From NCBI GenBank assembly GCA_024641705.1, contig JAHECO010000040.1, positions 1 to 33,119 on the forward strand: a DNA stretch of 33,119 bases, in the 5' to 3' direction. Positions 18,373 to 33,119 of this stretch are shown piece after piece. Source of the stretch: Candidatus Kryptoniota bacterium (GTDB lineage: Bacteria > Bacteroidota > Ignavibacteria > Kryptoniales > JAKASW01). The notes below the pieces were generated by a model, which was given only the letters and a program-made list of their open reading frames with translations, had not been told where the DNA came from and searched no databases. The translations under genes were made by a program, and so were the position numbers. Position 1 is the first letter of the stretch; each line of letters begins with the position of its first letter.

Positions 18373-18446
18373 TGAACCCGGACCGACACGGGGTGGCATC
18401 GTGAAAGGTGTCACGAGTCGTTTCCGGAAAAATTCTTGAGGACGAA

Positions 18447-20762
18447 ATGAGTCAATTGAGCTGCTTCTTTGTTGAACTTTCGCTGTTTCATTTGCCTACC
18501 CGCGCCCGGGCATATTCTCTGACGGCATTGTTGTTTGCTCTGCTTGTCCCTCTGCGTGTTTCTCTCGCGCAACAATCTGAGCGGACGAATGCGGCGAACA
18601 AGGCTTATCTCGATCAGAAACTGCCGATGGAGAAGCGTGTCGATGATCTATTGAGCCGCATGTCCCTGCAGGAGAAGGTGGGACAGATGTGCCAATACAA
18701 TGCCGGCGGTGCAAACGCGGAACAGCTGGCGGCCCAGGGTCTGGTGGGATCTTTCCTCAACGTCACCACACCTGAGGGGATCGATAAATTGCAGAAGGCG
18801 GCGGTAACCAGATCGAGGCTCGGCATCCCGATATTATTCGGGCTCGACGTTATACACGGCTTCTCAACGATATTCCCGATTCCGCTTGCGGAGGCAAGTA
18901 CATGGGACCCGGACATGGTGAAGGCGTGCGCCTCAATTGCGGCGAAGGAAGCGTTTTCCCAGGGAATAAGATGGACTTTCTCTCCGATGGTAGATATCAC
19001 GCGCGACCCGAGGTGGGGCAGGATCGCCGAGGGCGCAGGCGAGGACCCGTTCCTCGGCATGGCCATGGCGAAGGCTCAAGTCGAAGGATTCCAGGGGCCG
19101 AGGCTTACTCCTGAGAGCTACCTCGTAGCTTGCGCTAAACATTTCGCGGCATATGGTGCGGCGGAGGGAGGACGCGACTACAACACTGCAGAAGTTTCTG
19201 AACGCACGCTCCGTGAAGTCTATCTCCCGCCTTTCAAAGCCGCCGTCGACGCCGGGGTCGGAACCCTGATGAGCGCGTTCGACGACCTTGACGGGGTTCC
19301 CGCCACTGCCAACCCGTTCACGCTCAGGGATATCCTGAAGGGCGAATGGGGGTTCGATGGATTCGTCGTGAGCGACTGGGACGCGGTCGGAGAGCTGATC
19401 AATCACGGAATAGCCTGCGACTCTTCGCAGGCGACTATGAAGGCAGTGACCGCGGGGGTGGACATGGACATGGTCGGCCCCTTCCACAACCACCTTGCCA
19501 AGCTTGTCGAGGAAGGGAAAGTGCCGGTGAAGCTCGTCGACGATGCAGTGCGCCGGATACTGACCATTAAGTTCGAGCTGGGCCTTTTCGAACACCTATA
19601 CACCCTAATCGAGAATTCGAAAGCGAGTCTCATGCTCCCGGAATACAGGAAAGCCGCGAGGGAAGAGGCGCGGGAATCCATCGTCCTGCTGAAGAACGAC
19701 GAGAGTCTCCTTCCACTCAGCAAAGAGACGAAATCAGTCGCGGTGATCGGACCTCTTGCCGACAGCAAAGTGGATATGCTCGGACCCTGGCATTGCCAGG
19801 GGAAACCTGAACCGGTGGTAACCCTGCTGAACGGCATAAAGGCGAAGGTCTCGTCTTCCACGAAGATCTCTTACGCCGAGGGCTGCGGTATCAACGATAC
19901 GTCGACCGACGGTTTCGCCGAGGCTCTGAAGGTTGCCGGGAATGCCGATGTCGTCATACTTGCGTTGGGTGAAAGGGGAGACATGAGCGGTGAAGCCGAG
20001 TCCAGGTCCTCGCTCGACCTTCCCGGCGTACAGCAGCAACTTGCCAGGGCTGTCGCCGCGCTCGGCAAGCCGGTGGTGGAAGTCCTCATGAACGGGCGCC
20101 CGCTCTCCATCCAATGGTCGGCAGATCACGTACCGGCAATTCTCGAAACCTGGTTCCTGGGGACGGAAGCCGGAAACGCTATTGCCGACGTTTTGTTCGG
20201 CGATTATAACCCCAGCGGAAAACTCCCCGTGACGTTCCCGAGAACCGTGGGACAGGTACCGATTTATTACAATCACATGAACACCGGCAGGCCGCCATCG
20301 ACCGAACATTTCACGTCGAAGTATATCGACCTTCCCTGGTCACCTCTCTTTCCCTTTGGATATGGACTAAGCTACACGAAGTTTGAATTCTCCGATTTCA
20401 ATGTCGTCGCTGATCCCGGCGTAAAGGATCAATACCTGGTCACCGTGGACGTAACGAACGCCGGGAAGAGAAGCGGGGCAGAGATAGCCCAGCTCTATAT
20501 CCGGCAGAGATGCACGTCCGTTACGAGACCCGTCGAGCAACTCGCTGGCTTCAAGAAAGTCCAGCTTCCCGCGGGCGAGACCAAGACGATCAGTTTCATC
20601 CTTACGCCGTATGATATCTCGTTCATAAATGCGAACATGCAGCGCGTGGTTGAGGCGGGAGATCTTGAAGTGATGGTGGGCGGGAATTCGGTAGACCTCA
20701 TCTCAAAAACGGTTCAGATAGAGAAATCCATGCCCGTCGTGGACAGAGTGCCGGTTTTCTGA
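18447..20762 (+). CDS. GH3 beta-glucosidase, BglX-like, exported
   Basis: GAGG five bases before the ATG at 18447 supports this start (771 residues) over a GTG at 18408. The N-terminus has a hydrophobic leader (SLTALLFALLVPLRVSLAQQ) for export. The GH3 N-terminal barrel includes MSLQEKVGQMCQYN, GIPILFGLDVIHGFSTIFPIPLAEASTWDP, ACAKHFAAYGAAEGGRDYN and the nucleophile D310 in GFDGFVVSDWDAV. The second domain holds ESIVLLKNDESLLPLSK and SGEAESRSSLDLPGVQ (probable acid/base Glu near 516-518). A C-terminal fibronectin III-like domain (VTVDVTNAGKRSGAEIAQLYI) completes it. It hydrolyses beta-glucosides such as cello-oligosaccharides, probably in the periplasm. Confidence 0.95.
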   Translation: MSQLSCFFVELSLFHLPTRARAYSLTALLFALLVPLRVSLAQQSERTNAANKAYLDQKLPMEKRVDDLLSRMSLQEKVGQMCQYNAGGANAEQLAAQGLVGSFLNVTTPEGIDKLQKAAVTRSRLGIPILFGLDVIHGFSTIFPIPLAEASTWDPDMVKACASIAAKEAFSQGIRWTFSPMVDITRDPRWGRIAEGAGEDPFLGMAMAKAQVEGFQGPRLTPESYLVACAKHFAAYGAAEGGRDYNTAEVSERTLREVYLPPFKAAVDAGVGTLMSAFDDLDGVPATANPFTLRDILKGEWGFDGFVVSDWDAVGELINHGIACDSSQATMKAVTAGVDMDMVGPFHNHLAKLVEEGKVPVKLVDDAVRRILTIKFELGLFEHLYTLIENSKASLMLPEYRKAAREEARESIVLLKNDESLLPLSKETKSVAVIGPLADSKVDMLGPWHCQGKPEPVVTLLNGIKAKVSSSTKISYAEGCGINDTSTDGFAEALKVAGNADVVILALGERGDMSGEAESRSSLDLPGVQQQLARAVAALGKPVVEVLMNGRPLSIQWSADHVPAILETWFLGTEAGNAIADVLFGDYNPSGKLPVTFPRTVGQVPIYYNHMNTGRPPSTEHFTSKYIDLPWSPLFPFGYGLSYTKFEFSDFNVVADPGVKDQYLVTVDVTNAGKRSGAEIAQLYIRQRCTSVTRPVEQLAGFKKVQLPAGETKTISFILTPYDISFINANMQRVVEAGDLEVMVGGNSVDLISKTVQIEKSMPVVDRVPVF

Positions 20763-21729: not shown

Positions 21730-22233
21730 ATGGGAACAGGCCAAACGCTTTTGACGATCGCAGCCGTCATGCTTCTGGGGACAGTAATCCTTTCCACAAA
21801 CCGCAGCCTCGGCGACACGAATCAAGTCCTGCTGAACTCAAACGTAGGGCTCGAAGAAGTGTCTCTTGCCACGTCCATAATTGAGGAAGCACAAGGGAAA
21901 ACCTTCGATGAGCAGACCGACACCAGCAATGTGACGGCCCTGAACCAGCTCACTCCTGCGAACCAGCTGGGACAGGAAGGCGGTGATTCGACCGACCTTA
22001 ACGACTTTGATGACTACAACGGACTGAACGGCAACGGTCGGCTGGAGGTGGACACCCTCAGTACCGGTATCTATTATGCCTACACGAGAGTACACTATGT
22101 ATCGCTAGGGAGCGGCCTCGACAACAACTCGAGCACCGCCACGTGGAGCAAGAGACTGGACGTCTGGGTGTGGAACAAGGACGTCCCCGACACCGTGAAG
22201 ATGCACACAGTTTTCAGTTATTGGTATTTCTAA
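21730..22233 (+). CDS. PilV-like minor pseudopilin, cassette A gene 1
   Basis: This 167-residue protein opens with MGTGQTLLTIAAVMLLGTVIL: a very short leader, then one hydrophobic helix, as in type IV pilin-like proteins. If cleaved after the second Gly, the mature protein would start QTLLTI, lacking the usual Phe1 and Glu5. The following segment, SLATSIIEEAQGKTFDE, resembles the LAQSxxE region of PilV/GspI-type minor pilins. The rest is Asp/Asn-rich (DLNDFDDYNG) and ends in WSKRLDVWVWN and FSYWYF. It is clearly paralogous to 24448-24990. Twelve bases separate it from the next gene. Pilus or secretion-filament role is inferred from order and N-terminus. Confidence 0.65.
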   Translation: MGTGQTLLTIAAVMLLGTVILSTNRSLGDTNQVLLNSNVGLEEVSLATSIIEEAQGKTFDEQTDTSNVTALNQLTPANQLGQEGGDSTDLNDFDDYNGLNGNGRLEVDTLSTGIYYAYTRVHYVSLGSGLDNNSSTATWSKRLDVWVWNKDVPDTVKMHTVFSYWYF

Positions 22234-22245
22234 GGAGAGAATGAG

Positions 22246-22848
22246 ATGGGCTCCAGTACCCTGATAGATATAGTAAGCTCGATGCTTATCAGCGGCTTTC
22301 TCCTTGTGACCGCGCTTCAGATGGATGAGAAAGCGGTACAGAACACCTACTACTCTGAAACGAATCTGACAGTCCAGCAGAACCTAACATCCCTCGTTCA
22401 GAATCTCGAATATGATTTCCGTAAGATGGGATACTGTGCTGACCCGAATCTGCAGCCGAAGACCTATATGTATTTGGTGCAGGGTGACACGAGTTCCATT
22501 TCGTTCGTAGCCGACCTCAATAATGTTGGTGTCCTTGATACCGTCAAGTACTATCTCGGAGGACATGTGCCCGGGTGTCCGAACCCGCACGTGAAGATGT
22601 TGTACAGGCAGGTCGACAGCGATCCGGCGGTCGGCTCGAACCTCGGGGTCACCGAATTCTACCTAAAGTATCTGGACTCGTTCGGGCAGGAACTTCCCGT
22701 TCCCTTTACAGCACCGTCACAGGTGCAAATGGTGGAGATCACCATCCGGGTAGAACCTGCTGCCGCATACGACGACACCACTTACAGCCAGAACTTTGCG
22801 CTGTGGAGGCAGACGAGATTGATTTCAAGAAACCTGAAGAACAGGTGA
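22246..22848 (+). CDS. PilW-like minor pseudopilin, cassette A gene 2
   Basis: AAGGAGAG precedes the ATG. The 200-residue product begins MGSSTLIDIVSSMLISGFLLVTALQM, a single hydrophobic helix after only a few residues. The next part, LTVQQNLTSLVQNLEYDFRKMGYC, matches the PilW-type pattern of a helix followed by a D(L/F)R..GYC motif. The C-terminal half is beta-rich (FYLKYLDSFGQELP, VQMVEITIRVEPAA) and ends LWRQTRLISRNLKNR, also PilW-like. It has exactly the same length as its paralogue at 25000-25602. No Glu5 or normal prepilin cleavage site is present. Confidence 0.68.
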   Translation: MGSSTLIDIVSSMLISGFLLVTALQMDEKAVQNTYYSETNLTVQQNLTSLVQNLEYDFRKMGYCADPNLQPKTYMYLVQGDTSSISFVADLNNVGVLDTVKYYLGGHVPGCPNPHVKMLYRQVDSDPAVGSNLGVTEFYLKYLDSFGQELPVPFTAPSQVQMVEITIRVEPAAAYDDTTYSQNFALWRQTRLISRNLKNR

Positions 22849-22857
22849 GGTGGAGCT

Positions 22858-24093
22858 ATGGTAGGGAGAGGTACATTACTCGTTATACTTGGATTCAGCC
22901 TTATATTCTCATTCGGAAGCAGGTATTGGGAGAGAACAAGCAACGAATCCGTCGACAACTTCGTCCAGTACTACAACCAGACGAACGCGCACAACATTGC
23001 CGTCAGCGCGGCCAACTTAGCCGCTGATTCTATCTTTCAAAATCCGAGCGTCACAAATCTTTCTTTGAGCGGTAATTTCTCATCGGGAACGTTCAGTATA
23101 TCCACGGCACCTTTCGATACAGCGGATATCCAGATCACTTCCATCGGTTCGTACGAGAGTACGAGGGACACCGTTCAGGTGGTCTTGAGCCCGTATTCCT
23201 TCACGAAGTATGCTTTCTTCTCGGTTGTGGAGTCGAACATATACTGGATCACCGGAGACACGTTGTGGGGTCCCTACCACACGGAGTCGAAGATAGACCT
23301 TTCGGGCAGTCCGGTATTTTACGGCAAGGTTACCACCAAGATCGGGACCAATCCGAAGCTCCCCAGCAAATTGGCTACTCCGTATTTCTACGGCGGTTAT
23401 CAGTCGGGAGTCAGCCTTAATCTGCCCAGCAGCCTGTCCACTCTCCAGAGCGCGTCAGTGGGTGGTAAGGACTTCGTGAATCCCGGGAGCGGAAGCTACG
23501 ACGTCTATCTGACATTCAACGCCGATGGAACGGTTACTTACAAAGACAACACAATGGCATCCGACTCGACAGTCCCGCTGAACACGCTTGCTCCAAATGG
23601 GGTTATACATGTTTCGAAGGGCAACGCTCACGTCCAGGGAGTCCTGAACGGTCGGGCCACAGTCGTCGCAGACGGAAGCTCCGGTGGGGGGTACGGCAAT
23701 GTGTGGATCGAAGGCAACGTTACATATGCCCACGATCCGCAAGCCGGTTCGAGTAACGATATGCTGGGTCTCGTAGCGAACAACAATGTGGCAATCAGGG
23801 AAACAACTCCTCCCATGCACGATGTCCACATCGACGCCGGGATCTTTGCCAGGACGGGATCTTTCACTTACCAGGGATACAACGACACCGGAGTCGGACC
23901 TCTCGGGACCATCTATCTCTACGGCTCCGTCACCAATTACCAGAGAGGTGCGGTCGGCGAGTTCGACCAATCCACCAATAGCCTGAAAGCCGGGTTCCAA
24001 AAGAACTACAAGTACGACGACCGTTTCTACGCCGCTGCGCCCCCGTTTTTCCCGTCGGCCAGCCAGTTCCAGATCGTTTCCTGGAGGGAATAG
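22858..24093 (+). CDS. PilX-like protein with beta-rich C-terminal domain, cassette A gene 3
   Basis: GAGGTGGAG lies before the ATG, 9 bp after the previous gene. The 411-residue product starts MVGRGTLLVILGFSLIFSFGSRYW (one membrane helix), then FVQYYNQTNAHNIAVSAANLAADSIF, a helix like the N-terminal part of PilX-type proteins (A.N.A.SGAN.A). Residues about 120-410 are beta-rich: VHVSKGNAHVQGVLNGRATVVADG and VWIEGNVTYA suggest a repetitive beta-helix, followed by LGLVANNNVAI, IFARTGSF, IYLYGSVTNYQRGAVG and a closing KYDDRFYAAAPPFFP...WRE. Paralogous to 25613-27067. Probably exported or anchored through the N-terminal helix. Confidence 0.66.
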   Translation: MVGRGTLLVILGFSLIFSFGSRYWERTSNESVDNFVQYYNQTNAHNIAVSAANLAADSIFQNPSVTNLSLSGNFSSGTFSISTAPFDTADIQITSIGSYESTRDTVQVVLSPYSFTKYAFFSVVESNIYWITGDTLWGPYHTESKIDLSGSPVFYGKVTTKIGTNPKLPSKLATPYFYGGYQSGVSLNLPSSLSTLQSASVGGKDFVNPGSGSYDVYLTFNADGTVTYKDNTMASDSTVPLNTLAPNGVIHVSKGNAHVQGVLNGRATVVADGSSGGGYGNVWIEGNVTYAHDPQAGSSNDMLGLVANNNVAIRETTPPMHDVHIDAGIFARTGSFTYQGYNDTGVGPLGTIYLYGSVTNYQRGAVGEFDQSTNSLKAGFQKNYKYDDRFYAAAPPFFPSASQFQIVSWRE

Positions 24094-24447
24094 CACGGCC
24101 TCTTCTGCCGGGACAATACAGCGGCCGCCACGGGAACGTGTTTATCACATGCATAGGGCTGTTTGACGCGGGACACAGGGGCATCTTCGATAGTTGCATC
24201 GAATCTGGTGCATAGATATATTTTCAGCGAGTAGGAATCTACTCGTGTAATGAGTCGTGTAAAAGGGCTATGAGTCGAGTCGAACATCTTATTCCTGGTT
24301 GGGGGAGCGCCGGTACCACCATTCACCCGGTACCACAAGCCTATACCATACAAGTGGTTACACTGACCGTCTAAGCTTTGGCTTGCGGGGGGATAGCCTC
24401 CTGCCGATTAAGTAGCCCGCGCGACGTGACAACTGGAAGGAGAAGTG
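24094..24447 (+). promoter_or_regulatory. Regulatory gap between the two cassettes
   Basis: The 354-bp gap contains TTGCAT at 24194-24199 and TATATT at 24217-24222 with a 17-nt spacer, a promoter candidate for cassette B. A 7-bp-stem hairpin (CGAGTAG / CTACTCG, 24228-24245) sits at the expected transcription start. Further down, CCGGTACCAC occurs twice in direct orientation at 24310-24319 and 24327-24336, about 17 bp apart. A leader of over 200 nt before the cassette B start is implied. No open frame here looks real. Confidence 0.5.
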
Positions 24448-24990
24448 ATGGGAACCGGTCAAATGCTGGTCACTATCGGAGCCATAATGCTCCTGGGAAC
24501 GGTGATCTTGACGACAAACAGGGGAATCACCGGCAGCGGTGAACTGATGCTAAAGACAAACTTCGGCTTGGAATCGACATCGCTCGCATCGTCTACTATC
24601 GACGAAGCAATGTATCTCCCTTTTGATGCTGCAACCGCAAACTCATTCGGCGAGGGGACAATGTACATAGCTATTAACCAAACGAACCTTCTCACGCCTG
24701 CGAACCTTCTCGGGAGCGAGAACGCTGATGATGCCGTGGCCCCGGACGACTTCGACGATTACAATGGTCCCGCCGGCGGGGCTAACAATTACCGGCTCCA
24801 GACGATAAGCGACAGCACAGGCGTTTACATGGTGAAGGCCCACGTTTGCTATGTAAACAAGAACAACCTGGACGGTACTTCAAATACTCAAACGTGGTTG
24901 AAGAGATTGGATGTGTCGGTGTGGAATACTGCCAATCCGCTTGATACCGTCAAGATGTCCGCGATATACGGTTATTGGTATTTTAGATAA
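24448..24990 (+). CDS. PilV-like minor pseudopilin, cassette B gene 1
   Basis: GGAAGGAGAAG precedes the ATG at 24448; a GTG three bases earlier is less likely because the paralogue begins MGTGQ. The product has 180 residues. It shares with gene A1 the leader and helix (MGTGQMLVTIGAIMLLGTVILTTNR), the SLASSTIDEA segment, LTPANLLGSE, DDFDDYNG, TWLKRLDVSVWN and the closing YGYWYF. It is 13 residues longer than A1, mostly in the variable middle (GEGTMYIAINQTN). The same caveat on the missing prepilin motif applies. Confidence 0.65.
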   Translation: MGTGQMLVTIGAIMLLGTVILTTNRGITGSGELMLKTNFGLESTSLASSTIDEAMYLPFDAATANSFGEGTMYIAINQTNLLTPANLLGSENADDAVAPDDFDDYNGPAGGANNYRLQTISDSTGVYMVKAHVCYVNKNNLDGTSNTQTWLKRLDVSVWNTANPLDTVKMSAIYGYWYFR

Positions 24991-24999
24991 GGAGGAATG

Positions 25000-25602
25000 A
25001 TGGGTAGTACAGCGCTTCTCGACATAATCGGCTCGATGCTCGTCGGAGGATTGCTCCTCCTCTCCGCGTTGCGAATGAACGACCAGGCTACGCAGAATAC
25101 TTACCACATGCAGGAAAACCTGACCGTCCAGCAGAATATGACGTCCATAATCGAAAGCATACAATGGGATTTTCGAAAGATCGGCTATTGCAAGGATCCG
25201 AAGCAAATAAAAGACCCTAAGTATTTCATCCTATATGGTGATTCGAATCAGATTGTGTTCCGGGCGGATATCTACAACGACGGTACGATAGATACAGTCA
25301 GATGGTATCTCGGGGGCTATATCGCGGGGCCGAACCCGCGAATACGAGACTTGTGCAGGCAAGTAAACTCGGAGCCGGTGCTTCACGCGAATCTTGGCGT
25401 GACGCAGTTCTCCTTGAAATACTTCGACGTTTGCGATAGTCTCATGCCTACAGTCATAGCGCCGCAAGCGAGCATTCCTCAGCTTGTCGAATTGACGGTC
25501 AAAGTCGAGCCGACCGCTTCGTACAACAGGGCTTACACTGAGAACTTCGCCTACTGGCGACAAACGCGATTGGTGTCGCGAAACATGATATTGCAGAGGT
25601 AG
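25000..25602 (+). CDS. PilW-like minor pseudopilin, cassette B gene 2
   Basis: Two adjacent ATG codons lie at 24997 and 25000. I choose 25000 because AAGGAGG then has a workable distance and the product matches the paralogue's first residues (MGSTALLDIIGSMLVGGLLLL). The 200-residue protein keeps ENLTVQQNMTSIIESIQWDFRKIGYCKDP, GVTQFSLKYFDV, PQLVELTVKVEPTASYN and the terminal YWRQTRLVSRNM. It carries a pair of cysteines near GYCKD and DLCRQ, and one in FDVCD, which might form disulfides outside the cytoplasm. Confidence 0.68.
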   Translation: MGSTALLDIIGSMLVGGLLLLSALRMNDQATQNTYHMQENLTVQQNMTSIIESIQWDFRKIGYCKDPKQIKDPKYFILYGDSNQIVFRADIYNDGTIDTVRWYLGGYIAGPNPRIRDLCRQVNSEPVLHANLGVTQFSLKYFDVCDSLMPTVIAPQASIPQLVELTVKVEPTASYNRAYTENFAYWRQTRLVSRNMILQR

Positions 25603-25612
25603 GAGGTGCATT

Positions 25613-27067
25613 GTGGTTGGTAAAGCATCTTTAATCGTAATACTCGGCTTTAGTATGATCTTCGGGATTGCAAGCCGGTATTGGAATAGAACAAGTACTC
25701 AGGCTATCGAGAATTTCGTGAATTATTATGACTCGACCTCCGCCCACGTCCTGGCAATAAGTGCCATCAACATTCTTGCGGATTCACTCTTCTGGAACCA
25801 GGGCGGCGGGGACATGACCCATCTGGATATAGGGCCTCTCTCTTTTCAGGGCGGTACCGTCCGTATGACGACAAAGCCGGATACGATAGACGGCGAGTTT
25901 GACGTTCTTGCCACGGCAGTTTCTCAATATGCCGGTTTCAGGGGCCACACAATCTACGACACTGTTCAGATACTCATGAAGCCCGGCAGGTTCAATGAGT
26001 GGGCGTATTTCACCGATAAAGATAGCGCGATCTACTGGACGACCGGGGAAACGCTGGACGGACGTTATCACACCAACGGCACATTATACCTTTATGGCGC
26101 CCCCACCTTCACCGACAACGTAAGCACCGGCGTGGGGTTGACTACGAAGCAAAAAGCTCCGGCACTTGTGAGTCCGAATTCGCTGCCGGATGCATATGGC
26201 AACAGGCTAACTGCTCCGGGCTACCAAAATGGTGTGCTCATTCCCATGCCGAACAGTCTTGCAAACTACAACAGCATACCAAACGTGACAATCTTGAAGG
26301 ACTCCTCGCACACAGGGAGCGGTTACGCGTATGATGTTTACATGACCCTTAGCGGAACAGATGTTTCATACTATACGGTTACATCAAGCGTGTCGACGTC
26401 ATGGTCAGGCGCGACATACACGCAGGTAAGCAGAGTCCCCGCTACCGGAACGACAACCGTTCCTATATCCTCGTTCGGCGACGCGGGTGGAAATGGGCTC
26501 GGGAGTGTCGTGGTGATACAGAACGGAGACCTCCACGTCTCCGGACAGATTGACGGAAAACTCACCTTGGTCGCGCAGCAGGGTACCTCGGGGCAGGCCC
26601 GTGTAAGCTCGAGTTCGTACGGCAGTAAAATAGAAGGACAGAGCGTCGACGTCGACATGACTTATGGCAACGGAAGCAGCAATCACAATAATGGCAACGT
26701 CATTATCAACGGAGACGTCACTTACGCTAATATGCCCACGGATTTAAGTGACGACCGGAACCTACTCGGTCTCGTTGCGGATAACAGTATAGCGGTGGGC
26801 AAACTGGCCTCTGCGAACCTAACCATCGATGCTTCGCTGTTTGCCCGGCAGGGAAAATTCTTCAACAGCAGGTATCAATCTGCGGCGTACGGTACCTTGA
26901 CTCTATTCGGCTCTATGGCGCAGAAGACCCGCGGCGCCGTCGGACTGGTGGGTAGCAACGGATTCGTTAAGAACTACAGCTACGACAAGCGCTTTGAGAG
27001 AACAATGACCTCGCCGCCCATGTCGCCGTCGACCGGGAGCTACAACGTAGTATATTGGCGGGAGTAA
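25613..27067 (+). CDS. PilX-like protein with beta-rich C-terminal domain, cassette B gene 3
   Basis: AGGAGG precedes the GTG at 25613. The 484-residue product starts MVGKASLIVILGFSMIFGIASRYWNRTS, here without any glycine at the usual cleavage position. FVNYYDSTSAHVLAISAINILADSLF follows as in A3. It is 73 residues longer than A3; extra sequence is concentrated in the Ser/Thr/Gly-rich middle (about residues 245-365), including a repeat-like YGSKIEGQSVDVDMTYGNGSSNHNNG. Shared blocks are DLHVSGQIDGKLTLVAQ, VIINGDVTYA, LLGLVADNSIAV, SLFARQGKF, LTLFGSMAQKTRGAVG and the end YNVVYWRE. Probable filament-tip or surface component, by inference. Confidence 0.66.
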   Translation: MVGKASLIVILGFSMIFGIASRYWNRTSTQAIENFVNYYDSTSAHVLAISAINILADSLFWNQGGGDMTHLDIGPLSFQGGTVRMTTKPDTIDGEFDVLATAVSQYAGFRGHTIYDTVQILMKPGRFNEWAYFTDKDSAIYWTTGETLDGRYHTNGTLYLYGAPTFTDNVSTGVGLTTKQKAPALVSPNSLPDAYGNRLTAPGYQNGVLIPMPNSLANYNSIPNVTILKDSSHTGSGYAYDVYMTLSGTDVSYYTVTSSVSTSWSGATYTQVSRVPATGTTTVPISSFGDAGGNGLGSVVVIQNGDLHVSGQIDGKLTLVAQQGTSGQARVSSSSYGSKIEGQSVDVDMTYGNGSSNHNNGNVIINGDVTYANMPTDLSDDRNLLGLVADNSIAVGKLASANLTIDASLFARQGKFFNSRYQSAAYGTLTLFGSMAQKTRGAVGLVGSNGFVKNYSYDKRFERTMTSPPMSPSTGSYNVVYWRE

Positions 27068-27289: not shown

Positions 27290-30200
27290 ATGCGTCGAAC
27301 GTCTTTGAAGGGAATGGCCCGACCGGAAGGCGGAAACCGTCTGCTGCTTGCGGCGTTTCCCATCCTCCTCATTCTCTTCTGCGGTGTCGCCGGGGCGCAA
27401 ATCTATGACTTCAAGACTTACTCCGTACGAGAAGGGCTCCTCTCGAACGCAGTCACCTCCCTTTGCCAGGATTCATACGGCTATCTGTGGGTCGGGACCG
27501 GCGACGGGGTAAGCTTATACGACGGCGAGGTCTTCAGAAACTACACCGTGGCAGACGGGCTTGCTTCCAGCCTGGTGAATTGCATCATCGAGGACCTGGA
27601 CAACAAGGGCGTCATCTGGATGGGAACGAACGGCGGAGGTGTGAGCCGGTTCAAGGCCGGGAAGTTCCGGACTTTCAAGATCGGCAACTCCGACTGGTCC
27701 GAAAGGGTGAATTCGCTGGCCGAAGACAGCTCCGGCACTTTGTACTGCGCCACCGACGACGGCGTCTACCGACTAAAGGATGGAATCTGCAAACCGCTTT
27801 CGAGCGAGGTCATGCACGGCACGTTCAATCAGGTCGTGCGGAGCGGCGATAGTTTGTTCATCGTGGATGGCAAGGGGGCTCTTCTTCAAGTTAATCTCGT
27901 CAACGGGCGCACTCGATCACTTGTGAAGGATCTGCCGGCGTCGCTCAGGGTGAGTAGAATATCGGTCGACTCAAAGAAGGAACTATGGCTCGTGTCAGAC
28001 GATGGAACAATGATGAACCTGACCGGGAGAGTATTGGCCCGCCGTGCAATTGGATCCGTCCCGAAATTCATTACGGACGACGGGGCCGGCGATATCTGGA
28101 TCGGCACCTCGATCGGGCTCTACAAGCTGGACATGAATTCATTTCCCTCGTCTCCGCTTGCGCTTCTGACTACGGCAAACGGACTGGAGCAGGACGACAT
28201 CACAGCCGGGCTTGTCGACAGGGAAGGAGATCTCTGGATCGGTACGGCGGGCAAGGGATTGGCGAAACTCGCAGACAAGAATTCGTTCGCGTTTCCGGTT
28301 GAGTACGGCCGTATAAGTGAGAACAATTCCCAGGCATCTTCGGACAAGTATGGACACATTTGGGTAGCCGGAAAAGCCGGCCTGACGGAAATCTGGAACG
28401 TGGGCGTGGGCGTACTTAGAAGGCATTTTCATCTGTACAGGGAAATGAACGTTGCGGCATCGTGCTTTTCCGCACAGGTATCGTCGGGGAACCGGTTATG
28501 GCTTGCGTCGGAAGATGGAGTGATACACTGCTTTTCTATACATAGTGAAGGAAACGAGGCTGAGAGACTGCGGGATGTGAGTTCATTTTCGGTGAACAGA
28601 ATGCTGCCCGGTAAGAACTTGCTTTGCCTGTATGTGGACGGCGAAGGGCGGGGATGGTGCAGCGTCGATCTCTCCGGCGTCCTCGAGTTCAACACCTCGA
28701 AAGGGTTGGAAGGTGCGAGGGTCTACACCACGAACGACGGTCTGCCGGACAACTCCGTTCGGGCGATATACAGCGACAGGGAGGGAAACGTCTGGTTCGG
28801 CGGATACATCGGTGGGCTGTCTGAACTCAGGGATGGCAAGATGACCCGGTTCACGCGCAGGGACGGCCTGCCCGACAACTCGATCCGCGCGATAGTGCAG
28901 GATGATTCGGGCAACATGTGGATAGGCACGAGGTATGGAGGCATCGCAATAATGGCGGGAAATCGATTCACCACGCTCTCCGTCAATGAAGGCCTGGTCA
29001 GTAACGGCATTTGGGCGATGTGCTTCAGCAGGGAACACGGGATCTTCTTCGGTACGCAGCGGGGGTTGCAGGAACTGCAGCGCAGCGACTGGCACTCTCT
29101 TGGCTGGCGCGCGTTCGGCGATGCCAACCCGTCTTACGCCTGCGGTACAGCCGTTTCATCAAGCGGCGGTCGGGGAACCGAACTCCTCTGGGCGAGCAAT
29201 GCCACGGGGATATTCCTCAGCAACTTATCCCGGGCGCCTCGTTCACGAGTGGCCCCCCTCGTATACATTACCGGACTTTTTGTCAACGGCAAGAAACTTG
29301 ACCTTGATTCCGCTGTCGCGAGAGCCGGACCGGAACTTCAGTCTTCGGAAAACACTCTGACGTTTGAATTCGCGGGAGTCAGTATGAGGGACGAAGGGAG
29401 TTTAAGGTACCACTATATCCTTCACGGTGCCGATGCCGACTGGCACCTCCTGCGGCGACGCCTGCCTATTACCTATGCCACGCTTCACCCGGGCAAATAT
29501 GTCTTCGAAGTGAGAGCCGTGAACTCCGCGGGGCTCGAGAGCAAGGATGTGGCGACGCTGCCGGTTGTCATCGTCTCGCCCTATTGGCGACGATGGTGGT
29601 TCGTGACTTCTGCGGCGATAATCATCCTTTCCGTCATTTATTTCTTGATCAGAGTGAAAGTCAGAAGGCTCCTCGAAATTGAGAGGGTGCGGGCGAGGAT
29701 TGCCACCGACCTCCACGACGATATAGGATCCGGGCTTACGAGGATCGCTATCCTGGCCGATGTCGCACTTCGCCAGACCGAGGCCAATGATGTCGCCGCC
29801 CGGACGGGGTCCCTCCATCGTGCGCAGGGAAGCGGGGAGAGCTTCTCCGCGCACAGCCTTGTGCAGAAAATAGGAACGAACGCGAGAGAGCTTGTCGATT
29901 CAATGAGCGATGTCGTCTGGTCCATCGATCCGAAGAATGTGACAGTTGGTGACCTCGTAACGCGTTTCCGTTCGTTTGCCTACGAGATGTGCGAAGCGAA
30001 GGGAGTCAATCTGCAATTTGAAACCGATCCTGAACTGGAGACTTTGCGCCTCGACCCCGGAATCATGAGAGCACTTCTGATCATCACGAAAGAGGCGTTG
30101 AATAATTCGGTCAAGCATTCGGATTGCGGGAACGTGAGGATCGGTATAAAGTCGAAGGCAAAGGAGATTCACCTCCTGGTGTCCGACGACGGCCGCGGTT

Positions 30201-30340
30201 TCCAGGCAGGGGGACATCCGACGGGCCACGGGCTCGAAAACATGCGAAAACGTGCCGAGAAACTCGGAGGAGAGTTCAGACTTAGGACCTCCCCGGGTGC
30301 CGGTACCATCATTGAGATAACGGTGCCTTTTTCCACGTAA
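27290..30340 (+). CDS. Double beta-propeller / Y_Y_Y sensor histidine kinase
   Basis: This 1016-residue kinase has a signal peptide or first membrane anchor (LLLAAFPILLILFCGVAGAQ). Then come about a dozen Reg_prop propeller blades (YGYLWVGTGDGVSLYDG, VIWMGTNGGGVSRF, GDLWIGTAGKGLAKL, GNVWFGGYIGGLSEL, GNMWIGTRYGGIAI), a Y_Y_Y domain (about 689-757) and a transmembrane helix (about 770-790). The HisKA_3 domain has the phospho-acceptor H809 in ATDLHDDIGSGLTRI; the HATPase domain shows EALNNSVKHS, SDDGRGF and GHGLENMRKRAEKLGG. It is built like the sensor half of Bacteroidota hybrid two-component systems but has no receiver or AraC part. Its ligand, perhaps a glycan fragment, is unknown. The start is uncertain: GAGGAG lies 19 nt upstream. 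Confidence 0.93.
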   Translation: MRRTSLKGMARPEGGNRLLLAAFPILLILFCGVAGAQIYDFKTYSVREGLLSNAVTSLCQDSYGYLWVGTGDGVSLYDGEVFRNYTVADGLASSLVNCIIEDLDNKGVIWMGTNGGGVSRFKAGKFRTFKIGNSDWSERVNSLAEDSSGTLYCATDDGVYRLKDGICKPLSSEVMHGTFNQVVRSGDSLFIVDGKGALLQVNLVNGRTRSLVKDLPASLRVSRISVDSKKELWLVSDDGTMMNLTGRVLARRAIGSVPKFITDDGAGDIWIGTSIGLYKLDMNSFPSSPLALLTTANGLEQDDITAGLVDREGDLWIGTAGKGLAKLADKNSFAFPVEYGRISENNSQASSDKYGHIWVAGKAGLTEIWNVGVGVLRRHFHLYREMNVAASCFSAQVSSGNRLWLASEDGVIHCFSIHSEGNEAERLRDVSSFSVNRMLPGKNLLCLYVDGEGRGWCSVDLSGVLEFNTSKGLEGARVYTTNDGLPDNSVRAIYSDREGNVWFGGYIGGLSELRDGKMTRFTRRDGLPDNSIRAIVQDDSGNMWIGTRYGGIAIMAGNRFTTLSVNEGLVSNGIWAMCFSREHGIFFGTQRGLQELQRSDWHSLGWRAFGDANPSYACGTAVSSSGGRGTELLWASNATGIFLSNLSRAPRSRVAPLVYITGLFVNGKKLDLDSAVARAGPELQSSENTLTFEFAGVSMRDEGSLRYHYILHGADADWHLLRRRLPITYATLHPGKYVFEVRAVNSAGLESKDVATLPVVIVSPYWRRWWFVTSAAIIILSVIYFLIRVKVRRLLEIERVRARIATDLHDDIGSGLTRIAILADVALRQTEANDVAARTGSLHRAQGSGESFSAHSLVQKIGTNARELVDSMSDVVWSIDPKNVTVGDLVTRFRSFAYEMCEAKGVNLQFETDPELETLRLDPGIMRALLIITKEALNNSVKHSDCGNVRIGIKSKAKEIHLLVSDDGRGFQAGGHPTGHGLENMRKRAEKLGGEFRLRTSPGAGTIIEITVPFST

Positions 30341-30369: not shown

Positions 30370-31080
30370 ATGGGACATTTAGGATTGAGATTGGACGACA
30401 AGAAAGACAAGAAGATATCTGAAATGACCTCTTTGCCTTCGGACGAAAACATCATCCGGGTAACCATAGTCGAGGATGACGACGAGATTAGAAACGGGCT
30501 GTGCTGGCTGCTGAACCATTCGGACGGCTTTGCCTGCATGGGTACGTGCAGGAATTGTGCGGAGATCATGAAGGGCATCGAAGAAAACACACCGGACGTG
30601 ATTTTGATGGACATAGGTCTCCCGGGCAAATCCGGCATCGAGTGTGTCCAGACAATCAAGGAGCACTACCCGAGAGTGGAAATCCTCATGGTGACGGTGT
30701 ACAGCGATGAGGAGAAAGTCTTCCAGTCTATCAGAAACGGCGCGGTTGGCTATATTCTAAAGAATACATCCTCGGAGAAACTCCTCGATGCCATCAGAGA
30801 GGCTTACAGAGGCGGAGCGCCCATGTCTCCGGAAATCGCAAGGAAGGTCATCAGGTACTTTCACGGGAGTGACGGAGGCGAGTTGACTGCACCCCTGTCT
30901 GAAAGGGAAGTTGAAGTACTCCAATGTCTCGTCGACGGCCACTCCTACAAGTCGATCGCGGACAAACTCTATATCAGCGTCCACACCGTCAGGTTTCACC
31001 TTCACAACATCTATGAGAAACTCCACGTCAGGTCACGGGCCGAGCTCGTGGCAAAGACCGTGAAGAACAAGCTCGTCTAG
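30370..31080 (+). CDS. NarL/FixJ-type response regulator
   Basis: The 236-residue protein (or 218 from an alternative ATG at 30424, neither with a strong ribosome-binding site) has a receiver domain and a LuxR-type helix-turn-helix. The receiver shows VTIVEDDDEIRNGL (acidic pocket), the phosphorylated Asp in VILMDIGLPGKSG (D81 by the longer numbering), the VTVYSDEEKV switch region and YILKNTS with the conserved lysine. The output domain has LSEREVEVLQCLVDGHSYKSIADKLYISVHTVRFHLHNIYEKL. It starts 30 bp after the kinase gene, so the two form a two-component pair with the HisKA_3 kinase. It probably controls transcription at the two flanking dyads. Confidence 0.94.
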   Translation: MGHLGLRLDDKKDKKISEMTSLPSDENIIRVTIVEDDDEIRNGLCWLLNHSDGFACMGTCRNCAEIMKGIEENTPDVILMDIGLPGKSGIECVQTIKEHYPRVEILMVTVYSDEEKVFQSIRNGAVGYILKNTSSEKLLDAIREAYRGGAPMSPEIARKVIRYFHGSDGGELTAPLSEREVEVLQCLVDGHSYKSIADKLYISVHTVRFHLHNIYEKLHVRSRAELVAKTVKNKLV

Positions 31081-31375: not shown

Positions 31376-33119
31376 ATGAAACGCTTCGTATCCACGACGT
31401 GTGCCGTCTTCGTTGCAATTATCTCCCTGGCTGTTGTGCGGGCAGGATACTCACAGAATCTCCAGGACATCCTTTCACCGAGGGTTGCTTACTACGGCTG
31501 TAATTTCAGCACGGCGACGACCGATACCGGTGCCCCTTATAGAGCAATGCAGCTGAGCACTCACTTTCTCTACCAGGCCATAACCGCAGATACCACGACG
31601 AAGCAAGTCTACTTCTTTTCCTATGCAAACGCCGGAAGCGACAGCGTAGATAATCTCATAGCGGGAGGTTGGACCCCATCGCCCGACACAGGGACAATCT
31701 TCGGCACTGAGTATTATGTGGTCGGCACGGTCACGGGCAATTCAGGAGGTTACACGCTGACAGTCGGGTTGAAGGATGCCCGGTCTAAAGCCGATATCGC
31801 CACAGGATCCGCGACTTTCACGACATCCGATACGCTCGATATAAAAAGCGCAGCCGCGCAGGCTGCTGCCGGGATACTTCCGCTTATAACGAAAATCAGA
31901 ACTTACGAGGCTCAGGAACGGAGTGCAAATCCCGATCTTTCCATCGATCCTCAGGTGAACATCACACTGCCGGGACTAAAGGCGGCAGCCGACCAGAGCA
32001 TTAATGTGGCTATCCAGACCGTCGACTATGACGGGTACCCCCTCAAGAACAAAAAGGTGAAGCTGCACTCCTCCAGAGGATCGTTCGCGGCGTCAGAGGT
32101 CCAGACGGATGGGAGCGGCAAGGCCACCGTCGGATTTAATCCGGGCAGCGGCAACGGAATAGCCGTCATCTCGGCATCGATGGACAGCACTATAACCGTA
32201 TCCGGGCTCGTCACGAACGCCGATAAGGAGGCGTTCATGCTCGTCGGCAACGTGTCTCTCTCCGATTCCTCCCAATATTACACCACGCGGCTCTACCAGC
32301 TCGACTTTACGATGACGGTAAAGGTCGCAGGGTACAGCGACCAGAGCAACGTCGATCCGACAACCGTGACGTGGGTGCAGTCAAACTGGGCGGACGTATA
32401 TTCGGCTTACGGAAGTATACCCGGATATGGATTCGCCAGCACCCTCGCAAACAATTTCGAATTCACCGCCGATACGGGTGCCGTATGGGGGAGGATGTTT
32501 AAAACGAAGTCCGATCATAATGTCGGTATCCATGACGGCGATCCTTGTTTCGATTGGGACCTCTTCGAAGTCCAGACTTACAACGGCATAGTAGACACTA
32601 ATGAGCTCCACCAGAACGCGCCCGGGCATTTAAGCTACAACGGTTCCGGGTCTCCCGGCGATATTTACGAGGCCTATTACGAGATTCCTTTCATCTATCA
32701 GGGCAATGATGATTCATGGGGGCTCCCGGGAGGAATTGAGGATCAGAACGGGAACTGCCAGCGTGATGACGCGACATCGCTTCTGTATGATGTCGACCAG
32801 ACCTACAGTTTCTATGAGGATTTTCACGACACGGATCCCGGCGCTTCCTTCATGAAGAGCGGCGACAACTACACCATCAGTTTCACCAAGGTGGAGGTCA
32901 CCGAGGACACGGCTACCAGCCTTACCGGGTACACCTACCAGGTGATCGTCACAAATTACAACGCCACGTTGAAGCCGATTCAGCCGCTGACGGCCGTCGA
33001 TACATCCAGGGCCAGCACACTCCCGCACACTTTCGAATTGGGCCAGAACTACCCGAACCCTTTTAATCCTTCAACCACAATCAGGTACAGTCTGCCGAGA
33101 ACCTCCCGCGTCACGCTGA
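31376..33119 (+). CDS. Secreted type IX (Por) secretion substrate with Ig-like domain, truncated by window end
   Basis: CTAGGAGGACT precedes the ATG, and the frame is open to the end of the window (581 complete codons, no stop). A signal peptide (MKRFVSTTCAVFVAIISLAVVRAGYSQ) is followed by a Thr-rich N-terminal region. A bacterial Ig-like (Big_1/invasin-type) domain spans about residues 195-290 (YDGYPLKNKKVKLHSSRGSF, TDGSGKATVGF). A beta-rich middle (about 300-530) contains several Asp-rich turns (DGDPCFDWDL, DQNGNCQRDD) that could bind calcium. From about residue 549 a type A T9SS sorting domain begins: ELGQNYPNPFNPSTTIRYSL. It should cross the outer membrane through T9SS and be anchored or released. 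No catalytic motif is seen. Confidence 0.9.
   Translation, partial: MKRFVSTTCAVFVAIISLAVVRAGYSQNLQDILSPRVAYYGCNFSTATTDTGAPYRAMQLSTHFLYQAITADTTTKQVYFFSYANAGSDSVDNLIAGGWTPSPDTGTIFGTEYYVVGTVTGNSGGYTLTVGLKDARSKADIATGSATFTTSDTLDIKSAAAQAAAGILPLITKIRTYEAQERSANPDLSIDPQVNITLPGLKAAADQSINVAIQTVDYDGYPLKNKKVKLHSSRGSFAASEVQTDGSGKATVGFNPGSGNGIAVISASMDSTITVSGLVTNADKEAFMLVGNVSLSDSSQYYTTRLYQLDFTMTVKVAGYSDQSNVDPTTVTWVQSNWADVYSAYGSIPGYGFASTLANNFEFTADTGAVWGRMFKTKSDHNVGIHDGDPCFDWDLFEVQTYNGIVDTNELHQNAPGHLSYNGSGSPGDIYEAYYEIPFIYQGNDDSWGLPGGIEDQNGNCQRDDATSLLYDVDQTYSFYEDFHDTDPGASFMKSGDNYTISFTKVEVTEDTATSLTGYTYQVIVTNYNATLKPIQPLTAVDTSRASTLPHTFELGQNYPNPFNPSTTIRYSLPRTSRVTL

What the first reader, a model, noticed from the sequence alone, without database searches (positions are those of the whole stretch)
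21730..27067. Duplicated PilV-PilW-PilX-like cassette without canonical prepilin signals
Six genes form two tandem, diverged copies of a three-gene unit. Order, size and N-terminal regions resemble pilV-pilW-pilX minor pilins, yet the leaders are only 2-5 residues, lack the G-F cleavage context and lack Glu5. Gene B3 has no leader glycine at all. The third protein of each copy carries a large beta-rich domain. No pilus motor, platform or peptidase genes are nearby. This could be a noncanonical filament-tip complex or a cell-surface assembly particular to this lineage, with two copies for two substrates or conditions.
Basis: partly seen in the sequence, partly recalled or inferred. Interest (0 to 1): 0.8.

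Follow-up and report, generated by a model that had tools for sequence, protein, structure and literature searches.

The report
Leaderless pilus-tip genes, no processing enzyme
The six genes are two copies of a three-gene set for the tip of a retractable surface fibre (type IV pilus) whose building blocks, across many Bacteroidota, are made without the cleavable start-piece, mostly in genomes with no detectable cutting enzyme, two features thought to be universal for such fibres.

Summary
The six ORFs are real: two diverged copies (43-53% identical) of a minor-pilin cassette. Gene 2 belongs near PilW/PpdB/GspJ (PRK10557 hits 7 of 12 members, best 1.8e-8; predicted fold Z 9-10 to GspJ structures). 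Gene 3 resembles ComZ, the proposed tip DNA receptor of the Thermus pilus (Z 10.7). Gene 1 is pilin-like by position and N-terminus only. The machine is elsewhere in the genome: an operon with a 'MGQQQLLLIVLG' pilin, PilC, PilB, PilT-like ATPase, PilM/O and secretin. In other genomes the cassette lies inside that operon. The pilins have no leader: in 50 of 50 major pilins no start codon lies upstream in frame, and the frame closes about 4 codons upstream. In 197 genomes of the class, the major pilin (103) tracks gene 2 (103/103) and PilC (101/103), but only 8 have a prepilin peptidase, and those 8 also carry canonical prepilins. Phylum-wide, 115 of 130 leaderless genomes lack the peptidase, 13 single-contig genomes among those without it. 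The window's own lack is probably an assembly gap. Best reading: a type IV pilus variant that dispenses with prepilin processing. Unproven: that pili are made, and the true mature N-terminus.

The parts
21730..22233 (+). Gene A1, 167 aa, MGTGQTLLTIAAVMLLG..., short minor pilin (PilV/GspI position), leaderless
   Evidence: SD AAGGAGG upstream; frame closes 1 codon upstream; Q5 conserved 25/25. No family hit; pilin assignment by position and N-terminus only.
22246..22848 (+). Gene A2, 200 aa, MGSSTLIDIVSSML..., PilW/PpdB/GspJ-type minor pilin, leaderless
   Evidence: PRK10557 E 1.5e-4 (family best 1.8e-8); model: long N-terminal helix plus beta sheet, VIA Z 9-10 to GspJ structures; D8 = Glu+5 register.
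22858..24093 (+). Gene A3, 411 aa, MVGRGTLLVILGF..., large pilin with beta-solenoid-like domain, ComZ/PilX-like, leaderless
   Evidence: DUF4900 weak (8 of 11 family members, best 4e-7); model matches ComZ 6qvi Z 10.7 and EpsI/GspI.
24094..24447 (.). Gap between the two cassettes (about 350 bases) with SD AAGGAG before the conserved ATG at 24448
24448..24990 (+). Gene B1 from the conserved ATG (ORF opens at GTG 24445), MGTGQMLVTIGAIMLLG...
25000..25602 (+). Gene B2 from the conserved ATG (ORF opens at ATG 24997), MGSTALLDIIGSML...
   Evidence: PRK10557 E 2.9e-5.
25613..27067 (+). Gene B3, 484 aa, MVGKASLIVILGF..., second ComZ/PilX-like tip pilin, GTG start
27290..30340 (+). Neighbour, not part of the pilus: sensor kinase (Reg_prop propeller, Y_Y_Y, HisKA_3, HATPase); possible regulator
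   Evidence: a similar gene follows the cassettes in relative L004.
30370..31080 (+). Neighbour: LuxR-type response regulator

Best explanation
The two cassettes encode alternative minor-pilin (tip/initiation) complexes of a type IV pilus whose pilins are leaderless. SHOWN from sequence: translation can only begin about 3 residues before the position equal to mature residue +1 (register read from gene 2 against PpdB), so no basic leader and no conserved Gly/Phe cleavage site exist; the major pilin (MGQQQLLLIVLG) likewise has no leader. That pilin sits in one operon with PilC, PilB, a PilT-like ATPase, PilM/O-like proteins and a secretin. Most such genomes have no detectable A24 prepilin peptidase. 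INFERRED mechanism: the N-terminal hydrophobic helix is inserted as an uncleaved signal-anchor (N-in, C-out); methionine aminopeptidase probably removes Met1 (residue 2 is Gly, Val, Ser or Ala in nearly all), giving a near-mature N-terminus without prepilin processing or the linked N-methylation. PilC/PilB then polymerise subunits. Genes 1-3 form a priming tip (gene 2 in the GspJ/PilW role, with Asp8 doing the job of Glu5; gene 3 exposing a ComZ-like beta-solenoid that binds a ligand such as DNA, a surface or a polymer). Several cassettes per genome would give pili with different tips. Retraction by the PilT-like ATPase would allow uptake or twitching.
For: Operon: L020:9173-18276 with Pfam T2SSF 6.8e-33, T2SSE 3.8e-107 and 2.1e-34, Secretin 1.4e-27, PilO 1.8e-3. 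The cassette sits inside the operon in L008 (3 MGQQQ pilins - PilC - PilB - genes 1,2,3 - PilT) and L135, and within 8 kb of PilC in 21 genomes. Co-occurrence in 197 genomes: major pilin 103, gene 2 in all 103, PilC in 101/103 versus 3/94 of the rest, Fisher p about 1e-50 (genomes share ancestry, so p overstates). Leaderless: 50/50 major pilins without an upstream start, median 4 codons to a stop, 46/50 with SD; 14 more genes, 9 of them outside the class, likewise without upstream start. Peptidase: 8/197 genomes, all 8 also with canonical N_methyl prepilins; nothing above cut-off in 9 closed or near-closed genomes at E<=10; phylum 130 leaderless, 49 A24, 15 both. Folds: gene 2 Z 9.1-9.9 to GspJ/XcpW/EpsJ and TTHA1219, non-pilins 4.5 or less; gene 3 Z 10.7 to ComZ. 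Register: PpdB 9-73 = gene 2 5-69, E 0.0012 versus 0.76 for the best of 200 shuffles. Leaderless PilBs group apart from canonical GspEs (92/86). Conservation is highest at the N-terminus (major pilin residues 1-12: 95% top residue), as for a buried helix and unlike a discarded signal peptide.
Against: No experiment shows that pili are made. Models have low confidence (pLDDT 57 and 61, 8 and 7 sequences); plain Foldseek did not list pilins among its 50 best for gene 2. Gene 1 and the major pilin have no fold test and no significant profile match to canonical pilins. The window's own genome very probably has a peptidase: its T2SS gspE runs off a contig end just where gspG-pilD lie in sister genomes, and it has canonical pseudopilins. 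A peptidase of a family other than A24 would be missed. MetAP processing and membrane topology are untested; the first residues carry no positive charge (genes 1, 2, major pilin), which leaves N-in insertion unexplained.
Confidence: 0.76

Rival explanations
1. The pilins are still processed, but by an unrecognised prepilin peptidase (a very divergent A24 or a non-A24 enzyme) that cuts a leader of 2-4 residues.
For: Gene 3 keeps an invariant Gly at position 3, which would be -1 if the PpdB register holds for it, and Gly2 is invariant in the major pilin and gene 2.
Against: No protease-like gene seen in the operons read (most but not all genes there were checked by family search); no above-cut-off A24 in closed genomes; where A24 exists and was read it sits in canonical secretion loci; the residue at -1 varies (Q in the major pilin; F, S, T or Y in gene 2).
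Confidence: 0.12
2. The N-terminal hydrophobic stretch is an ordinary signal peptide cut by signal peptidase I, and the proteins are secreted or periplasmic rather than polymerised.
For: Short N-terminus followed by a long hydrophobic stretch; small residues follow it in the major pilin.
Against: The stretch is the best-conserved part; no basic n-region; the predicted helix runs unbroken from residue 3 to about 60 (low confidence there); near-perfect linkage with PilC.
Confidence: 0.05
3. The cassettes are pseudopilins of a type II secretion-like piston rather than of a pilus.
For: Gene 2 resembles GspJ best; secretin present.
Against: A second PilT-like ATPase is in the operon, usual for pili and not for T2SS; the T2SS-like set of these genomes is separate, canonical and peptidase-linked; ATPases group apart.
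Confidence: 0.07

Closest known systems
Type IVa pilus and the type IV filament superfamily (PMC6668835)
   Same: PilB, PilC, PilT-like ATPases, secretin, PilM/O-like proteins, several pilins, minor-pilin cassette
   Different: Pilins have no class III leader; the major pilin and genes 1 and 3 lack Glu5; most genomes have no detectable prepilin peptidase, which that survey counts among the core components
PpdB/PilW and GspJ minor pilins
   Same: Gene 2: PRK10557 match, GspJ-like fold, shared '-GYC-' motif, acidic residue at +5 (Asp)
   Different: Starts at about -3: 'MGSS' stands where PpdB has 'EQGF'
ComZ of Thermus thermophilus (PMC6561018)
   Same: Gene 3: pilin-like part plus large beta-solenoid-like domain; best structural match; ComZ too lacks usual pilin motifs
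   Different: 411-484 aa, identity about 19% over the aligned part; DNA binding untested
Melioribacter roseus pilus genes (PMC3534657)
   Different: The authors took the set to be incomplete; here the pilA role is filled by a leaderless pilin and pilD may not be needed (M. roseus itself was not checked)

Membership tests
Type IV pilus (type IV filament superfamily) | Assembly ATPase and PilC/GspF platform | tested here: met
   L020 Pfam T2SSE 3.8e-107, T2SSF 6.8e-33; 101/103 leaderless genomes have PF00482
Type IV pilus (type IV filament superfamily) | Secretin (diderms) | tested here: met
   Secretin 1.4e-27 in the operon
Type IV pilus (type IV filament superfamily) | Pilins with class III (prepilin) leader: basic leader, G/F-type junction | tested here: not met
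   no upstream start codon, no leader; canonical pilins of the same class have 9-34 residue leaders with 1-7 K/R
Type IV pilus (type IV filament superfamily) | Prepilin peptidase (A24) in the genome | tested here: not met
   Not detected in 95/103 (class sample) and 115/130 (phylum sample) leaderless genomes; 13 single-contig genomes among those without it. For the window's own genome the result is inconclusive because of a contig gap
Type IV pilus (type IV filament superfamily) | Pilin fold (N-terminal helix packed on a beta sheet) | tested here: met
   Genes 2 and 3, on low-confidence models; gene 1 and the major pilin not folded
PilW/PpdB minor pilin (gene 2) | Match to the curated family model | tested here: inconclusive
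   PRK10557 best E 1.8e-8 but the window proteins score about 21-24 bits against a curated cut-off of 120
ComZ-type tip pilin (gene 3) | Beta-solenoid inserted in the pilin fold | tested here: inconclusive
   Z 10.7 over 177 residues to ComZ, but the model is poor at 112-188, where a linker would lie
ComZ-type tip pilin (gene 3) | DNA binding, role in transformation | not testable with these tools
   Needs an experiment
Type II secretion system | Major pseudopilin GspG with canonical leader and GspO in the same set | tested here: not met
   Those belong to a separate locus type; leaderless ATPases group apart

The most novel reading that the evidence does not exclude
A whole branch of type IV pili, spread over several classes of Bacteroidota, has abolished prepilin processing: major and minor pilins are translated at or within about three residues of their mature N-terminus, no prepilin peptidase or N-methylation is used, and Asp8 (gene 2) or no acidic residue (major pilin) replaces the Glu5-N-terminus pairing thought to guide assembly.
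Probability: 0.65. Interest if true: 0.9.

Novelty: new variant of a known kind. Interest (0 to 1): 0.8.

Why it matters
Cleavage by a prepilin peptidase and a Glu5-bearing N-terminus are textbook requirements for type IV filaments. A widespread machine without them would show which part of processing is truly needed for membrane insertion, extraction and polymerisation. It would also explain why genome surveys report pilus motors without pilins or peptidase in this group (for instance Melioribacter roseus, PMC3534657), and it gives a search signature (MGQQQL; MGTGQ; MGxxTLxD; MxG[RK]) for pili that leader-based pilin finders would miss.

Tried and rejected
Peptidase absence in the window's own genome as evidence: rejected, because gspE runs off contig C26 where gspG and pilD lie in sister genomes. 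Longer leader from an unrecognised upstream start: rejected for nearly all genes, since the frame closes within 10 codons in 48/50 major pilins. Ordinary signal peptide: disfavoured. Profile searches of solved structures with genes 1, 2 and the major pilin gave nothing relevant. Plain Foldseek with the gene 2 model gave no pilin among the 50 rows shown; the pilin match came from the second-look aligner. Profile-profile comparison of genes 1 and 3 and the major pilin with canonical pilins of the same class was not significant; only gene 2 versus GspG was (P 1.5e-4). Literature: no paper holds MGQQQLL; searches for leaderless pilins found nothing relevant. The library holds open-licence papers only, so prior description elsewhere is not excluded.
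Full report
WHAT WAS CHECKED. The six ORFs exist as stated. For B1 and B2 the ORF opens one codon early; the position conserved in relatives, better spaced from the Shine-Dalgarno sequence, is ATG 24448 and ATG 25000. The two copies are 53, 49 and 43% identical (genes 1, 2, 3). Copy A is 79-87% identical to the first cassette of relative L004 (genes 3 and 2), while B is only 42-56% identical to L004's second cassette. The copies are therefore old and diverging.

COPIES. The genome (G000, 4.6 Mb, 95 contigs) has six copies of gene 2: two here and one each on C69, C83, C37 and C28, each in a gene 1-2-3 order. Sister genomes G107 and G122 have three in tandem on one contig.

THE MACHINE. The genome has a pilus operon on contig C83 (L020:9173-18276, minus strand): a 152-aa protein MGQQQLLLIVLGVIIVGIAIAVGISMFK..., PilC, PilB, a PilT-like ATPase, a PilM-like protein (NCBIfam Amuc_1101 PilM-like, 1.6e-7), a PilO-like protein and a secretin. 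In relative L008 three MGQQQ pilins, PilC, PilB, genes 1-2-3 and a PilT-like ATPase lie in one run. L135, from another class of the phylum, has the same order with two sets of minor-pilin-like genes. In 21 genomes gene 2 lies within 8 kb of PilC (coordinates typed from the tables). The cassettes are thus minor pilins of this machine that in the window's genus have moved away and multiplied.

LEADERLESS. In the major pilin the frame closes a median of 4 codons upstream of the conserved ATG, 50 of 50 have no upstream start codon, and 46 of 50 have a Shine-Dalgarno-like sequence in place. The 30 loci were picked by profile score, not by the MGQQQ pattern, and the hits in all of them start so. Genes 1, 2 and 3 behave alike: 23/25, 32/37 and 18/22 without an upstream start. 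Canonical prepilins of the same class have leaders of 9-34 residues with 1-7 K/R. Aligning the gene-2 profile to E. coli PpdB gives the register directly: gene 2 residues 5-69 match PpdB 9-73, so Met1 lies at -3 and the invariant Asp8 at +5. The NCBIfam model PRK10557 ('prepilin peptidase-dependent protein') hits 7 of 12 gene-2 proteins, best 1.8e-8.

PEPTIDASE. In 197 genomes of the class, Peptidase_A24 is found in 8, the major pilin in 103, gene 2 in 105, PilC/GspF in 104 and canonical N_methyl prepilins above cut-off in 11. Cross-tables: major pilin with gene 2 103/103; with PilC 101/103 against 3/94; A24 genomes all have canonical prepilins (8/8), and only three others do: G000 (gap), G033 (a lone gspG; no peptidase ORF in its 3-kb locus) and the 85% complete G035. 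All 8 A24 genomes have the leaderless pilus too; in the loci read, the A24 gene sits beside T2SS-like genes. Seven single-contig genomes of the class (G032, G108, G113, G143, G155, G170, G173) have leaderless pilins and no A24 above cut-off; at E<=10 the best match in nine closed or near-closed genomes was 0.055, below cut-off. In 394 genomes of the phylum, 130 have the MGQQQ-type pilin, 49 have A24, and 15 have both. Six more single-contig genomes outside the class (G199, G220, G252, G282, G332, G341) have the pilin profile match without A24. The six out-of-class loci read all start MGQQQL.

CAVEAT ON THE WINDOW'S GENOME. Its own A24 absence is not evidence. Its T2SS gspE runs off the end of contig C26, exactly where gspG and pilD stand in sister genomes, and it has canonical pseudopilins on C31. 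The claim rests on the other genomes.

FOLDS. AlphaFold models from the window and the search for related loci sequences have low confidence (pLDDT 57 for gene 2, 61 for gene 3). Gene 2: a helix 3-59 and a beta sheet; the eleven best rows of the second-look aligner are all pilins (EpsJ 9.9, XcpW 9.5, TTHA1219 9.6, GspJ 9.5), the best non-pilin 4.5. Plain Foldseek did not rank them high. Gene 3: helix 3-61, a small sheet, then a beta-solenoid-like domain; best match ComZ of Thermus (Foldseek E 4e-3, Z 10.7 over 177 residues), with EpsI, GspI and PilA matching the N-terminal part. ComZ carries a solenoid inserted into a pilin, binds DNA, is argued to sit at the pilus tip and was missed by a pilin finder (PMC6561018).

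ORIGIN. In a tree of 22 ATPases the leaderless-operon PilBs form one group (92/86), the canonical GspEs of the same class another (88/81). One origin of the leaderless machine within the phylum is the simplest reading; the sample is small.

MECHANISM. Shown: gene content, start sites, linkage, absence of A24 by profile search. Inferred: uncleaved signal-anchor insertion; Met removal by methionine aminopeptidase (residue 2 is Gly in the major pilin, gene 2 and most of gene 1, and Val, Ala, Gly or Ser in gene 3; three gene-1 sequences have Asn); polymerisation by PilB/PilC; genes 1-3 as tip complex; different cassettes as alternative tips. Not explained: how N-in insertion is set without basic residues, and what replaces the Glu5 contact in the major pilin.

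KNOWN OR NEW. The type IV filament survey of Denise and colleagues counts the peptidase among the core components and notes MSH loci without their own but in genomes that have another (PMC6668835). Here most genomes have none. The Melioribacter roseus paper reports pilT, pilQ, pilB and pilC with pilA and pilD not found (PMC3534657). This finding offers the explanation, though that genome was not checked by name. By the membership test two defining features (leader, peptidase) fail, so this is called a variant that works like a type IV pilus, not a plain member.

Noticed in passing
G107:C10:78372-84254 and G122:C79:21113-27123: Three tandem copies of gene 2 (cassettes) in two sister genomes; copy number per genome in the class sample ranges from 1 to 6.
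   Followed up: partly
L136:7127-8656; L140:9035-10567: A gene next to the MGQQQ pilins: the L136 copy matches O-antigen ligase (Wzy_C 2.3e-13), the L140 one is similar in size and place; could be pilin glycosylation enzymes.
   Followed up: partly
L136:12583-13086; L139:3993-4514; L140:4441-4938: Small gene between pilB and pilT in the out-of-class operons; the L136 copy is a cyclic-nucleotide-binding protein (7.9e-11); a possible regulator of motor switching.
   Followed up: no
G170:C1:2518637-2519617: A second, T2SS-like gspF with an in-frame stop in a closed genome without A24: looks like a decaying canonical T2SS.
   Followed up: no
L111 (G033:C6:31832): A lone canonical gspG in a 99% complete genome with no A24 hit: probably a relic.
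   Followed up: partly
L028:7854-9982 (G000 C28): Most diverged cassette of the genome: gene 2 starts MDTMMD (no Gly2), gene 3 is short (331 aa) and lacks much of the large domain.
   Followed up: no
L020:11738-13264: PilM-like protein with its best NCBIfam match to the Akkermansia Amuc_1101 family (1.6e-7).
   Followed up: no
window 31376-33118: Long ORF (at least 581 aa) running off the contig, no Pfam match.
   Followed up: no
window 18408-20762 and 5591-8344: A beta-glucosidase-like protein (by eye) and a GH20 hexosaminidase lie upstream; a similar glucosidase-sized gene and a lipocalin-like gene also precede the cassettes in L004.
   Followed up: partly
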